This document shows, piece after piece, positions 32,020 through 42,193 of a stretch of 64,000 nucleotides of DNA. The notes below the pieces were generated by a model, which saw only the letters and a program-made list of their open reading frames with translations, was not told the origin of the DNA and searched no databases. The stretch comes from Mycobacterium spongiae (GTDB taxonomy: Bacteria > Actinomycetota > Actinomycetes > Mycobacteriales > Mycobacteriaceae): contig NZ_CP046600.1 in NCBI RefSeq assembly GCF_018278905.1, positions 3,844,001 to 3,908,000 of the forward strand, written 5' to 3'. Numbering within the stretch: the stretch's first letter is position 1; the number at the start of each line of letters is the position of its first letter. Both the position numbers and the translations under genes were made by a program.

Positions 32020-32093
32020 GCCTCCGTAGCTCAGGTGGATAGAGCAAGGGCCTTCTAATCCCTAGGTCGCACGTTCGAGTCGTGCCGGGGGCA
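32020..32093 (+). tRNA. tRNA-Arg(TCT)
   Basis: A 74-nt cloverleaf: acceptor GCCTCCG/CGGGGGC (one T-G wobble), D-stem GCTC/GAGC, anticodon stem AGGGC/TCCCT with loop CTTCTAA (anticodon TCT), and T-stem GCACG/CGTGC with loop TTCGAGT. The innermost anticodon-stem pair is C-T. It marks the left border of the PE/PGRS-rich accessory stretch. Confidence 0.93.
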
Positions 32094-32222
32094 CAACCAC
32101 TCGACCCCCGGGCGAGCAAGTTGTTAGCTGTGCTTACTGTGTTGCGGCCTTGACCTGCACATATACACTGGTCGAGCTCCATCAAGGACTTGCCAGGTAA
32201 CGAGGGTGCGCGGAGGTTCGCA

Positions 32223-34175
32223 ATGTCGGTTGTCAGCGTTGCGCCGGAGATGATGACGACGGCGGCGTCAGATTTGGTACGTATCGGCTCATCGGTCAAT
32301 ACGGCCAACGCGACAGCGCGGGCGTCGACGACGCAACTGTTGGCCGCCGCTGAGGATGAGGTGTCGGCGGCGATCGCGGCGTTTTGGGGCGAACATGGGC
32401 GGGCTTATCAGGCGATCAGCACGCAGGCCGCGACGTTTCACCAGCAGTTCGTGCAAGCCCTCAACGCTGGGGCGCGCAGTTATGCGGCCGCCGAGGCGGC
32501 CAACGCCTCGCCGTTGCAGACCCTCGAGCAGCACGTCCTGGGCGTGATCAATGCGCCCACCAACGCGTTGTTGGGGCGCCCGCTGATCGGCAACGGCACC
32601 GACGGCGCCCCGGGGACCGGCCAACCCGGAGGCCCGGGCGGGATCTTGTGGGGCAACGGTGGCAATGGCGGTTCCGGGGCGGCCGGACAAACCGGCGGTG
32701 CCGGCGGGCCGGCGGGATTGTTCGGCAATGGCGGAACTGGTGGGGCCGGCGGAACTGGCGTCACCGGCACGACCGGCGTCGCCGGTCAGATCGGCGGTCC
32801 CGGCGGCATTGGTGCGGCCGGCGGGGTCGGTGGTCGCGGCGGGCTGTTGTTCGGCGCAGGAGGGACCGGCGGCGTCGGCGGGATCGGGGGCATCGGTGGG
32901 GTCGGCGGCCCGTCCGACGGCGGAAGCGTGGCAGGTGTCGGCGGTAGAGGCGGCACCGGCGGCCTCGGCGGCGCTGGCGGCGCGGCCGGGTTGTTTGGGA
33001 GCGCCGGTCACGCGGGCGTCAACGGAACCAACGGCGGCAACGGCATTCCCGGCGGCCCGGGTTTTTTCCCCATCGAGTTCACCAACAACACCGGCTTCGG
33101 CAACGACGACGTCTACGTGACCGCACTCGGCCAGACGACACCTGGCCAGTGGTCGTGGATCGACCAGACCGGCACGGCCCACCCGATCGACCACGCCGCC
33201 GCGAACGCCCCTGGCCACCTCACGAAGAACGGGATCAATTACGCCAACATGTCGTTCACCCTCGACCAGACGGGTGGCGACTTCTGGATGCCGCCCGAAT
33301 TCCAGGGGGGCCGGATATTTCTGTCGATGGAGGAGCCGCTCTACATCGCCATAAGCCCCGACAATTCGGGTTGGGCAGGTCTCGACCCGGCCAACTCTGC
33401 CGATCCGAACTACGCCACGGTCTACGACTGGTACGAGATGACCTTCAAGTATGGCGAAATCCCCTTCGGCGGCAATACGACTCAGGTGGATCAGTTCGGC
33501 TTCCCGTTCACCTTCACGCTGGAGCAGGATTCCACTGGCTTCGCGGACACCCGCGGCCTGACGCTGTTGCGGGATGACGTGTTCCAGCAGTTCATGACCA
33601 CGGTCCCAGCCGAGTTCCACTCGCTGGTGATCAACGATGATGTCACCGGCGATCCGCTGCGGATCGTGGCTCCGCGGTCCGTCCAGCCCGGAGGCCTGGC
33701 CACCTGGCTTGATTCACCAATCAATGACTTCTGGACGACCTATGAAACCAACCCGTTCAACTACGACGGCCCCGGCTACACGGTGCAAGGCAACGTCAAC
33801 GCCAGCGACGAGTTCGTGTACACCGTGACCCCCACCGGGGGCAGCAGCACGATGTACTCGATGATGAAGCCCACAACGGCGCAAACCTTCGCCGCCAACG
33901 GCCCCTTCGTCGGCACCGAGCAGCAGGGGGCGTTTCTCGCCGAGCTCAACGCGGCGTTCAACCGCGGCGTGGCGTCCTCTCCAGATCAATGGGCCGATGT
34001 CGATGCGTACTATCCGACCGGAGAGCGGTGGAACGATTGGGCACAGTTCTTCCACGCCAACAGCATCGACAACCTCGCCTACGGCTTCCCCTTCGACGAC
34101 GTGAACAGCCAGAGTTCGGTGTTGATCCTCAGCAACACTGAGCCGCCGACGAAACTGTCGTTCGACCTTGGCTAG
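32223..34175 (+). CDS. PE_PGRS protein with C-terminal beta-1,3-glucanase (GH64-like) domain
   Basis: A 650-residue modular protein. The PE domain is residues 1-95 ([20 protein letters not shown], with Y-x-x-x-E export signal YAAAE). The linker is GRPLIGNG (about 120), followed by a short PGRS region (about 125-275). From residue 281 a non-repetitive domain begins [20 protein letters not shown]. It follows the pattern of GH64 laminaripentaose-producing beta-1,3-glucanases: a thaumatin-like N-terminal half, then WYEMTF and NTTQVDQFG. Glu405 and Asp423 match, as I recall, catalytic Glu154 and Asp170 of the Streptomyces matensis enzyme, and the end is [14 protein letters not shown]. The PE domain implies ESX-5 export, placing an enzyme outside the cell. 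GGAGG lies seven bases before the ATG. Activity on beta-glucan is an inference from motifs. Confidence 0.88.
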
Positions 34176-37052: not shown

Positions 37053-37142
37053 GGCTCGATGCCAAGCTAGGAACCCGGGCTACGGTGAACTCACCGACCG
37101 GATTGAGGGTGATCGGGCCCGGACGGGTTGAGAGGTTGTCTC

Positions 37143-39800
37143 GTGTCGTTTGTGTTCGCGGTGCCTGTGCTCGTGGAGTCCGCGGCGCAGGATTTGGCTG
37201 GCCTTGGCTCGACGCTCACCGCGGCCAATGCTGCGGCATCGGCGCAGACGACCGCGATCGTGACAGCGGCCGAGGATGAGGTATCGGCGGCGATCGCGGC
37301 ACTGTTCTCGTCCCACGCTCAGGCCTATCAGCGGGTAAGTGCGCAAGCGGAAGCGTTTCACCGCCAGTTTGTGCGGGCATTGACCGCCGGGGCGGGAGCC
37401 TATGCAGTCGCCGAGGCTGCTAGCGCCTCGGCGCTGCCTACCGTGCAGCAGGGATTTCTCACCGCGGTCAATGGGCCCGTCGAGACGCTCACGGGGCGCC
37501 CACTGATCGGCAACGGCGCCAACGGCGCTCCCGGAACCGGCGCTGCGGGCGGCCCGGGCGGGTGGTTGTTCGGCAACGGCGGGGCCGGCGGATCCGGTGC
37601 CCCGGGTATGGCCGGCGGTGCCGGTGGGGCGGCCGGACTCATCGGCGCTGGCGGGGCCGGCGGTGCCGGCGGGAGCACGTCGGCTCTCGGCGTGATCGGC
37701 GGCGCTGGCGGTACCGGCGGAGCCGGCGGATGGCTGTGGGGCCCGGGCGGAAACGGCGGAGCCGGCGGATTGGTCACTGCAATAGGTTCGACGGGCGGTG
37801 CTGGCGGAGTCGGCGGGGCGGGTGGGCTATTCGGCGCCGGCGGGCTCGGCGGAGCCGGCGGAGCCGGCCTTGGTACCAGCTCGACCGGCGGGGTCGGCGG
37901 GGCTGGCGGAGCCGGCGGGCTGTTGGCCGGGCTGGTCGGCGCCGGCGGCGGTGACGGTGGCATCGGCGGTACCGCCGACACGACGGGCGGCTTCGGCACC
38001 GGCGGCTCGGGAGGCGCAGGGGGCAACGCCGGCTGGTTCGGCGGCGGCGGGGCCGGCGGCGCCGGCGGGGCCGGCGGAGCTGGCTTCGGTGCCATGAGCG
38101 GGGACGGTTTTGGTGGCGCCGGCGGGGCCGGCGGCGCTGGCGGGCTGCTGGTTGGCCCCGGCGGAACGGGCGGGGCAGGCGGAGCCGGCACCGGCGCTGG
38201 GGACGGCGGGGCCGGCGGAGCCGGCGGCAATTCCGGGCTGCTGCTCTCCAACGGCGGGGCCGGCGGGCCTGGCGGTGAGGGCGGGGATAACGGCGTTAGC
38301 GGCAGTGGCGGGGCAGGCGGTGACGCCGGCTGGGTTGGCAATGGCGGCGCCGGCGGGATCGGCGGCAACGGCTTTTCCAACACCGGCGCGGGCACCGGTG
38401 GGACGGGCGGCAGCGGCGGACTGCTCGTCGGCAACGGCGGTGCCGGTGGTGCTGGCGGGACCGGCTTCGGTGGCGTCGGCGGGTTTGGCGGGGCCGGCGG
38501 GTCCGGCGGGGCCGGCGTGCTGGTCGGCAACGGTGGCAACGGGGGCGTCGGCGGCACCGGCCCGACCCCCGGAGGCACTGGCGTGGGCGGCCCAGCCGGG
38601 CTGCTGCTGGGCCTGGACGGCTTCAACGCGGCCGCGAGCACCTCGCTACTGCACACCCTGCAGCAACAGGCTCTGGGCGCGATCAACGCGCCCATCCAAG
38701 ACCTGACCGGGCGCCCGCTGATCGGCAACGGCACCCCGGGAGCAGCCGGCAGCGCGGCCAACGGCTCACCCGGTGGCTGGCTACTTGGCGCCGGTGGCGC
38801 CGGCGGGTCAGGGGCGACGGGCCCGGGGCTTTCCGGCGGGGCCGGCGGGGCCGCAGGACTATTCGGCACTGGCGGCGCCGGCGGTACCGGCGGGTTCTCG
38901 GCCGTGGGCACCAGCGGGCCCGGCGGAGTCGGTGGGGCTGGTGGGTGGCTGTTCGGCGATGGCGGGGTCGGCGGTGCCGGGGGGCTGGGCCTGTTCGGTG
39001 GGGCCGGTGGGGCCGGTGGCGTCGGCGGTCTGTTGGGCGCAGGCGGGGTCGGCGGCGCCGGCGGGAACGGCGGTGGCGCCGGCGGGGTAGGCGGTGCCGG
39101 GGGGCTGCTGGGCGGTCTGGTCGGCGCCGGCGGCGGAGACGGTGGTACCGGCGGATTGGGCACCAACGGGGGCGCCGGTGGAGCGGGCGGGAGCGCCGGA
39201 TTGCTCGGCGGTCCCGGAGGCGCCGGCGGCGCCGGGGGTGCCGCCGGATTCAGCCCTGCCGGTGGGGCTGGCGGGGTCGGCGGGGCGGGCGGCAATGCCG
39301 GGCTGCTCTACGGCAGCGGCGGAGTCGGCGGAAGCGGCGGGTTCGCCGGGTTCAGCCTCGCCGGCGGGATGGGCGGGGCCGGCGGGGCCGGCGGCGATGC
39401 CGGGCTGCTGTTCGGCAGCGGCGGGGCCGGCGGGCTTGGCGGGCTCGGCAATCAGGACGGCGGGGCCGGCGGGGCCGGCGGCGGGGCCGGCTGGATCGGC
39501 GGCGGCGGGGCCGGTGGGGCGGGCGGCATCGGCGATACCGGCGGCGGTGGAGACGGCGGGAACGGTGGCACGGGCGGGCAATTGTTGGGAAGCGGCTCCG
39601 CCGGCGGAGCCGGCGGAGAAAGCGATGTCGACGGCGGCGGCGGGGACGGCGGGGACGGCGGGAGCGGCGGGAGTGCCGTACTGATCGGCAACGGCGGCAA
39701 CGGCGGCAATGGCGGCGCAGGCACCACCCCTGGCAACGCTGGCGACGGCGGCGGTCGCGGGCTGCTGTTGGGCGAGAACGGGATCGACGGAGTGTCGTAG
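37143..39800 (+). CDS. PE_PGRS family protein with two PGRS modules
   Basis: An 885-residue PE_PGRS protein. The PE domain ([20 protein letters not shown], export motif YAVAE) spans residues 1-95, followed by linker GRPLIGNG near 118 and a first PGRS block. At about residues 495-530 the PGRS is interrupted by [20 protein letters not shown] followed by [17 protein letters not shown]. This second copy of the PE-to-PGRS linker is followed by a second PGRS block ending [12 protein letters not shown]. The structure suggests fusion of two PE_PGRS genes with loss of the second PE domain. The start is GTG at 37143 (MSFV), with GAGAGG seven bases upstream. The same two-module arrangement occurs in the gene at the right window edge. 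Confidence 0.94.
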
Positions 39801-40795: not shown

Positions 40796-42193
40796 ATGAG
40801 TTCGGGCGCTGTGGCGGATCGCGAAGCGATCACCGCAGCCTTTGATGCCGTGGACGCCGCCCTCGATACCGTGGCCGGCTTGGACTTCGACGCGCTCACC
40901 ACCCCGGAGTGGTTGGCGCTGTTGGAGCGCTGCGAGCGGGTGCGCCGACGCATCCCGACCCCCGAGCATCAGCTGATCAACAATCTGACACGCCAAGCCA
41001 GCCCCGAAGACCTCGGCGGCAAGCTCTCCCATGCGATCGCCGATCGGACGCTGATCAGCCGCGCCGAAGCCTCCCGGCGCATCAACGAAGCCGCCGATCT
41101 CGGACCGCGGCACGGGCTCACGGGCGAGCCGTTAGCGCCTGTCTTGGCCAGCACAGCGAAGGCCCAACGCGCCGGAAAACTCGGCTCCGGCCACATCGCG
41201 GTGATCCGCCGTTTCTGCCACCAGCTGCCCAGCTGGGTCGACCAGCCCAGCCGCGACCAGGCCGAAGCCGATCTGGCCGCAACGGGCACCCAGTACCGGC
41301 CCGAACAACTAGCCGGGTTCGCCGACAAGATCGCCGACTGCATCAACCCCGACGGCAACTACACCGACGAAGACCGGGCTCGGCGCCGCGGGCTCATCCT
41401 GGGCAAACAAGGCGATGACGGCATGTCCAAACTGAGCGGCTGGCTGACCCCCGAAGCCCGCGCCACCCTAGAGGCCGTATGGGCCAAACTGGCGACCCCG
41501 GGCATGGCCAACCCCACCGACGACACCGCCTTCGTGGACGGCCCGCCCAGCCATGACGCCATCGAGCGTGACACCCGCAGCCCCGCCCAACGCCAGCATG
41601 ATGGGCTCAACGCCGCGATGCGCGCGGTATTGGCTTCGGGAAAGGTAGGCCAACACAACGGGCTGCCGGCCTCGATCATCGTGACCACTACCCTGGCCGA
41701 ACTGCAAGCCGCCACCGGCAACGGACTCACCGGCGGCGGCAGCCTCGTGCCCATGTCCGATGTGATCCGGCTCGCGCGCCATGCCCACCACTACCTGGCG
41801 ATCTTCGACAACGGCAAACCCATCGGGCTGTACCACACCAAGCGCCTCGCCTCACCGGGACAGCGGATTGTCCTCTACGCCAAGGATCGTGGTTGCTCGT
41901 CACCGGGATGCGACGTACCCAGCTACCTCTGCGAAGTGCACCATGTCGATGAGTACGCCAACTGCGGACAAAGCCACATCGACAACCTGGCATTCGCCTG
42001 CGGCCCGCATCACCGGCTGCTCAAACCCGGCGGCTGGACCACCCGAAAACGCGCCAACGGCGACACTGAATGGCTGCCGCCGCCACACCTGGATCGCGGA
42101 CAACCGCGAACCAACGGGTTCCACCACCCCGAAAAACTGCTTCGCGACGGCCACGAAGACGACAACGGCGAAGACGGCGACCTAGAGATCTAA
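40796..42193 (+). CDS. 13E12 repeat family protein (DUF222 plus HNH endonuclease)
   Basis: A 465-residue member of the multicopy mycobacterial 13E12 family. The N-terminal DUF222 region (about 10-330) contains the family stretch [20 protein letters not shown]. The C-terminal HNH nuclease is [20 protein letters not shown]...CGPHHRLL (about 355-400), with paired Cys and the HH-D residues intact. In M. tuberculosis these elements (REP13E12) are dispersed repeats and serve as integration targets for prophage phiRv1. The acidic tail ([11 protein letters not shown]) is typical. It overlaps the convergent bkdC gene by 12 bases. It lies between echA14 and bkdC, where H37Rv carries different genes, so a mobile or recombining element is likely. 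Confidence 0.92.

What the first reader, a model, noticed from the sequence alone, without database searches (positions are those of the whole stretch)
32223..34175. Exported beta-1,3-glucanase-like enzyme built on a PE_PGRS scaffold
The sequence shows a PE domain, a short PGRS spacer and a roughly 370-residue globular domain with the GH64 pattern. Both candidate catalytic acids are present (Glu405 in WYEMTF, Asp423 in NTTQVDQFG), as is the closing [11 protein letters not shown]64 enzymes cleave beta-1,3-glucan. An ESX-5-exported version would act outside the mycobacterium, for example on fungal, algal or plant glucan in the environment, or on beta-glucan encountered in a host where Dectin-1 ligands matter. 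PE_PGRS genes carrying enzymes are few, and this one sits in accessory DNA beside a tRNA.
Basis: partly seen in the sequence, partly recalled or inferred. Interest (0 to 1): 0.75.

Follow-up and report, generated by a model that had tools for sequence, protein, structure and literature searches.

The report
PE_PGRS-fused beta-1,3-glucanase of a mycobacterium
This mycobacterial gene joins a type VII export tag and a glycine-rich surface linker to an intact-looking enzyme that should cut beta-1,3-glucan, the sugar polymer of fungal, algal and plant walls; the design was already reported for M. marinum, but in several related species the enzyme is paired with a second exported glucanase.

The parts
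32223..34175 (+). PE_PGRS-GH64 gene, 650 aa plus stop
   Evidence: single open frame; three Pfam domains
32212..32216 (+). GGAGG, likely ribosome-binding site
   Evidence: read directly; 6 nt before the ATG
32232..32504 (+). PE domain, residues 4-94
   Evidence: PF00934 E 3.7e-33
32481..32495 (+). YxxxE type VII secretion motif, Y87-E91
   Evidence: Y in 17 of 17, E (16) or D (1) in 17 of 17 full-length relatives
32574..32591 (+). GRPLIG motif, residues 118-123
   Evidence: RPLI in 17 of 17; motif described in PMC9436101
32586..33059 (+). short PGRS glycine-rich linker, residues 122-279
   Evidence: PF21526 E 4.9e-9 on residues 122-188; the rest by eye
33066..34133 (+). GH64 beta-1,3-glucanase domain, residues 282-637
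33435..33437 (+). Glu405, predicted catalytic acid
   Evidence: E in 55 of 55 GH64 rows; aligns with the position that is E in 5h9x and A in 5h9y and with the E of 3gd0
33489..33491 (+). Asp423, predicted catalytic base
   Evidence: D in 53 of 55 rows; aligns with the D of 3gd0
32020..32094 (+). tRNA-Arg(TCT), core neighbour upstream; not part of the function
   Evidence: beside the lipQ-like gene in 7 of 7 relatives fetched

Best explanation
A surface-displayed or released inverting endo-beta-1,3-glucanase. Steps: (1) the PE domain with YxxxE hands the protein to a type VII system, most likely ESX-5 [inferred]; (2) the GRPLIG-PGRS part carries or holds the cargo at the mycomembrane, and a PecA-like protease may remove the PE part [inferred from other PE_PGRS proteins]; (3) the GH64 domain binds a beta-1,3-glucan chain in its groove and hydrolyses it with Glu405 as acid and Asp423 as base [fold and residues shown, activity inferred]. 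The substrate would be glucan outside the cell: fungal, oomycete, algal or plant [inferred]. The PE-fused GH64 domains share one origin. In several sister species the gene stands beside a PE_PGRS-GH16 endo-beta-1,3-glucanase gene; this genome has only the GH64 gene.
For: GH64 by sequence and predicted fold. Catalytic pair: E 55 of 55, D 53 of 55 GH64 rows; both 17 of 17 among full-length PE_PGRS-GH64 proteins. Purifying selection: NG86 dN/dS 0.26-0.40 against 10 PE-type domains. Export motifs 17 of 17. Scaffold follows PE richness: the 8 genomes with PE-fused GH64 have 97 or more PE matches, the other 24 GH64 genomes 0-8; of 22 loci read from those 24 (best copy each), 21 show no PE or PGRS before the domain and one is truncated. 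Partner gene on the same strand behind a GH64 copy in 8 of 9 cases (coordinates), its domain matching endo-1,3-beta-glucanase 3dgt at E 6.6e-91. The window genome also encodes a PE protein with three CBM2 and three GH12 domains.
Against: No activity, expression or secretion data for this protein. M. tuberculosis Rv0315 is a precedent for a mycobacterial glucanase homologue without activity (PMC4606783, abstract). Of three residues that the 2016 paper says mark subsite +5 in LPHase (Thr156, Asn158, Trp163), only Thr156 is kept (T407); the others read Lys409 and Gly416 in the alignment, so the product may not be laminaripentaose. The window copy gives higher dN/dS (0.26-0.40) than close pairs among its relatives (0.08-0.13). 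The full-length model is poor (pLDDT 54.5), so exposure of the groove on the PGRS was not shown. The window genome lacks the GH16 partner, and 7 of 15 GH64 copies in the 8 genomes stand alone. A copy in G104 is split between frames. ESX-5 genes of this genome were not searched.
Confidence: 0.75

Rival explanations
1. A glucan-binding or antigenic protein on a GH64 fold that has lost catalysis, like the GH16 homologue Rv0315 of M. tuberculosis.
For: Precedent PMC4606783 (abstract). Two of the three subsite +5 residues named for LPHase differ. The window copy has higher dN/dS than close pairs of its relatives.
Against: Both catalytic acids and the NTTQVDQFG motif are intact, and the acids are near-invariant; Trp163 is also not at that place in another laminaripentaose producer, 5h9x.
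Confidence: 0.15
2. The enzyme acts on a glucan of the mycobacterium or its biofilm, or on host beta-glucan-receptor ligands, rather than on foreign cell walls.
For: Surface location is the published model for PGRS proteins (PMC9436101, passages). No direct evidence.
Against: Patchy occurrence, 8 of 61 PGRS-rich genomes, does not suit a housekeeping role. No beta-1,3-glucan synthase was looked for.
Confidence: 0.06
3. A decaying accessory gene: poorly expressed or not exported, kept by chance.
For: Lone copy without the partner in this genome; the copy in G104 has its PE part and GH64 part in different reading frames.
Against: Single open frame, likely ribosome-binding site, dN/dS well under 1.
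Confidence: 0.04

Closest known systems
PE proteins with LPHase domain, e.g. M. marinum WP_012394280.1 (PMC4758615, 2016)
   Same: PE domain plus C-terminal GH64 domain, same two catalytic residues, by homology modelling on 3GD9; also listed for M. ulcerans str. Harvey and Mycobacterium sp. 012931
   Different: Another species: M. marinum GH64 domains in the protein search are 75% identical to the window's. The section and passages read do not mention a GH16 partner, a single origin or the scaffold contrast; its supplement was not read
GH64 laminaripentaose-producing beta-1,3-glucanases (S. matensis 3gd0, P. barengoltzii 5h9x/5h9y) and the C. beijerinckii GH64 domain 5h4e
   Different: 24-36% identical over the aligned part; two of three subsite +5 residues of 3gd0 differ
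Other PE_PGRS or PE enzymes: PecA/PE_PGRS35, PE_PGRS16 (aspartic proteases), LipY (lipase)
   Same: export module plus C-terminal catalytic domain (PMC6819658, passages)
   Different: unrelated catalytic domain; those act on proteins or lipids
GH64 proteins of other mycobacteria, e.g. P0034 (M. austroafricanum), P0069 (M. psychrotolerans)
   Same: 58-63% identical GH64 domain
   Different: no PE domain; signal-peptide-like start judged by eye; some members have Big_9 or a weak GH17-like N-terminal region

Membership tests
GH64 (PF16483) | profile score over curated cut-off, nearly full length | tested here: met
   216.8 bits vs 27; profile positions 3-361 of 370
GH64 (PF16483) | barrel plus mixed alpha/beta two-domain fold | tested here: met
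GH64 (PF16483) | catalytic Glu and Asp (Glu154, Asp170 in 3GD9 numbering) | tested here: met
   E405 and D423 aligned; E 55/55, D 53/55
GH64 (PF16483) | inverting hydrolysis of beta-1,3-glucan | not testable with these tools
   needs an assay
Laminaripentaose-producing GH64 | subsite +5 residues Thr156, Asn158, Trp163 as named in PMC4758615 | tested here: inconclusive
   Thr kept (T407), others read Lys409 and Gly416; Trp is also not at that place in the producer 5h9x
PE_PGRS | N-terminal PE domain | tested here: met
   PF00934 E 3.7e-33
PE_PGRS | YxxxD/E secretion motif after the helical hairpin | tested here: met
   Y87-E91; 17 of 17 relatives aligned
PE_PGRS | GRPLI motif and glycine-rich PGRS repeats | tested here: met
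   GRPLIG 118-123; PF21526 E 4.9e-9
PE_PGRS | ESX-5-dependent export | not testable with these tools
   needs an ESX-5 mutant; ESX-5 genes of this genome were not searched

The most novel reading that the evidence does not exclude
Some slow-growing mycobacteria export a two-enzyme beta-1,3-glucan-degrading cassette by type VII secretion: adjacent PE_PGRS-GH64 and PE_PGRS-GH16 genes, one inverting and one retaining endo-glucanase, displayed together on the cell surface. The window holds a lineage that has, or kept, only the GH64 half. It would be a T7SS analogue of a laminarin- or fungal-wall-degrading system.
Probability: 0.65. Interest if true: 0.6.

Novelty: new member of a known kind. Interest (0 to 1): 0.42.

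Why it matters
Most PE_PGRS proteins have no known function (established view, not searched here). In this one the function of the cargo can be read from its family and tested with one cheap assay, so the gene is a good reporter for what PE_PGRS scaffolds do with a defined enzyme: secretion, cleavage, surface display. The GH16 partner in related species, and the PE-CBM2-GH12 protein in the same genome, point to an environmental glycan-attack role of type VII export, rather than only host interaction.

Tried and rejected
Integrative-element reading of the tRNA: no second copy of the tRNA 3' end in the window, and the tRNA is core. Dropped for lack of evidence, not excluded.

Direction of the scaffold change: the first tree placed the PE clade inside the other mycobacterial type, but holding all non-PE mycobacterial rows together is not rejected (AU p 0.596, and the held tree scored higher). 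Only the single origin of the PE-fused clade is claimed. Both trees are quick searches without bootstrap, and both print long-branch warnings. In one search the PE label needed 3 changes, because P0045 and P0047 had been labelled non-PE. By eye, P0047 starts in a shifted reading of a PGRS, and P0045 has no PE but keeps a PGRS-like remnant (Pfam finds only GH64 in P0045). Relabelled after seeing the tree, the clade is one branch with SH-aLRT 100.

Rows dropped: 4 of 152 proteins with a short domain match; P0006, P0011, P0013, P0014 from both trees; from the second tree also P0080, P0083, P0084, P0087, P0088 and 12 rows of one dense clade; of the rows after P0089 only chosen outgroup rows were used. 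In one search, domains under 500 bits, the non-PE loci and L032 were left out; dN/dS was printed for the 10 pairs with the window and for 15 of 55 pairs.

GH16 in general is not specific: 12 of 12 genomes scanned have some GH16 match. Only the partner type, at E <= 1e-60, is confined to 6 genomes.

The full-length model (pLDDT 54.5) was used for no claim. A Peptidase_M4 match below cut-off was dismissed as chance. PGRS matches are scored for about 14 candidates per genome, so they say only 'saturated' (61 of 396, counted by hand in the listing) or not. The sigma-70 scan found no promoter, uninformative for mycobacteria. GH17-like N-termini of some GH64 proteins are below the Pfam cut-off.

Paper searches: PE_PGRS with GH64, 0 papers; with glucanase, 1; with laminarin, 0; with GH16, 0. 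Mycobacterium with laminaripentaose, 5; Mycobacterium with GH64 and glycoside hydrolase, 11, of which 10 listed; WP_012394280, 1. The library holds open-licence papers only, and no supplement could be read. A 2024 M. marinum PE/PPE proteome paper (PMC11395111, outline and passages) does not use the word glucanase in its main text.

Full report
What is there. The frame 32223-34175 (+) codes for 650 aa and starts 6 nt after a GGAGG. Pfam finds PE (4-94, E 3.7e-33), PGRS (122-188, E 4.9e-9) and Glyco_hydro_64 (282-637, E 6.8e-64, 216.8 bits, cut-off 27).

Export module. Y87xxxE91 and RPLI are present in 17 of 17 full-length PE_PGRS-GH64 proteins aligned (chosen from the PE-type hits, partial ones left out). 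That PE_PGRS proteins go out by ESX-5, that YxxxD/E is the motif, and that PecA cleaves LipY and itself near the PE domain comes from PMC6819658 (passages). That PGRS may ferry C-terminal enzymes along the mycomembrane is a published model (PMC9436101, passages). None of this was tested for this protein.

Already known. PMC4758615 (2016; section 14 and passages) reports PE proteins of M. marinum, Mycobacterium sp. 012931 and M. ulcerans str. Harvey with the LPHase domain and both catalytic residues. The protein search names M. marinum, M. ulcerans, M. paragordonae, M. camsae, M. intermedium, M. shinjukuense and M. gordonae among the close relatives (120 of 346 and 120 of 311 hits listed).

Distribution and scaffold. 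GH64 occurs in 32 of 396 genomes of the genus sample. In the 8, I traced 15 GH64 copies: 13 lie in one frame with RPLIG, one (L033, taken to be G119:C241 by contig number and position) is cut by a contig end within the PGRS, and one (G104) has PE and GH64 in different frames; a further short fragment in G119 was not followed. Of the 24 others, 22 had a locus: 21 show a stretch without GRPLI or PGRS-like glycine before the domain, one is truncated, and two weak hits (G208, G382) had no locus. Only the best copy in each of these genomes was read. 61 of 396 genomes are PGRS-rich (14 or more scored matches, counted by hand), so the PE-fused form is in 8 of 61. The domain tree makes the PE-fused set one clade, SH-aLRT 100; whether it arose inside the other mycobacterial type is unresolved (AU p 0.596).

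The partner. In several of these species a second PE gene follows on the same strand, 15 nt behind the GH64 gene in L031, 22 in L086 and 42 in L084. PE is found in three of the four partner frames scanned by Pfam; in the fourth, from G104, the PE part lies in another frame. The C-terminal domain of the L031 protein matches endo-1,3-beta-glucanase 3dgt at E 6.6e-91, 308 bits, and has GELDIMES, the GH16 ExDxxE motif (motif recalled). Pfam sees GH16 in it only weakly: a sub-cut-off GH16 match in one of four and sub-cut-off SKN1_KRE6 matches in all four, which may be why it went unnoticed. With a strict threshold (E <= 1e-60) the partner domain occurs in 6 of 396 genomes, all 6 among the 8 above, in 9 copies. 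Eight of the nine lie 0.9-1.1 kb behind a GH64 domain on the same strand; the ninth (G046:C28) starts 225 bases from a contig end (coordinates). Seven of the 15 GH64 copies are alone, the window's among them. The species are related, so these are not independent events. One assembly (G346, 6% contamination) has GH64 and another GH16 in a single open frame, a further hint that the two activities go together.

The window genome. It has one GH64, one GH16 match in a 302-aa frame that is not the partner type, no GH18 match, and a PE protein with three CBM2 and three GH12 domains. So this organism probably exports both a beta-1,3-glucanase and a cellulase-type enzyme on PE domains [inferred].

Setting. 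Upstream lie genes that by eye look like plsC, a WS/DGAT and a lipQ-like esterase; downstream a PE gene and, after a phytanoyl-CoA-dioxygenase-like gene, a PE_PGRS gene (the PE and PE_PGRS genes Pfam-checked), then an echA14-like gene (names by eye and from recalled M. tuberculosis gene order). In 7 of 7 relatives fetched the tRNA-Arg(TCT) is beside the lipQ-like gene. In the 6 of these with 13-15 kb behind the tRNA, none has GH64 there; two show echA14 after 3.4 and 5.6 kb with other open frames between, four show none. The stretch is variable; the tRNA is not evidence of mobility. GC of the GH64 part is 0.617 against 0.659 for the window, GC3 0.846: no clear foreign signal.

Selection. NG86 dN/dS of the GH64 domain against 10 PE-type domains is 0.26-0.40. 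Among the 15 lowest-dS pairs printed, 7 close pairs of other loci give 0.08-0.13 and the other 8 give 0.23-0.40. This is constraint, looser between the deeper branches. The method is crude.

Verdict. The enzyme is probably real and active (0.75). The gene is a new member of a published kind; the tandem with GH16 in its relatives is the part worth following.

Noticed in passing
L031:7126-8817, L084:9384-11036, L086:6280-7953, L074:10080-11315 (PE part in another frame): PE_PGRS-GH16 endo-beta-1,3-glucanase genes directly behind PE_PGRS-GH64 genes in related species; not found in the papers searched.
   Followed up: yes
L091:1851-5720 (-), same genome as the window, outside it: 1289-aa PE protein with three CBM2 and three GH12 domains: a repeated PE-linked cellulase-type enzyme. 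The 2016 paper describes PE proteins with one or two cellulose-binding domains and GH12.
   Followed up: partly
window 39277-39368 (+): ARAGORN tRNA-Arg(ACG) call inside the PE_PGRS reading frame 37128-39800; probably a false call from GC-rich repeats.
   Followed up: no
window 37146-39800 (+): PE_PGRS protein with two GRPLIGNG motifs, like the two-motif arrangement that PMC9436101 describes for PE_PGRS3 and Wag22.
   Followed up: no
L074 (G104): In this genome both the GH64 and the GH16 PE_PGRS genes have PE part and enzyme part in different reading frames; assembly error or decay. Described only.
   Followed up: partly
P0045 (protein from a public sequence set): Member of the PE-fused GH64 clade without a PE domain; by eye a signal-peptide-like start and a PGRS-like remnant precede GH64. 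Possible swap to another export route.
   Followed up: partly
P0026, P0061: GH64 proteins with an N-terminal region weakly like GH17 (E about 0.005, below cut-off), hinting at two glucanase domains in one chain.
   Followed up: partly
window 40796-42193 (+): HNH-endonuclease-like protein resembling the 13E12 repeat family (recalled), next to the echA14-like gene.
   Followed up: no
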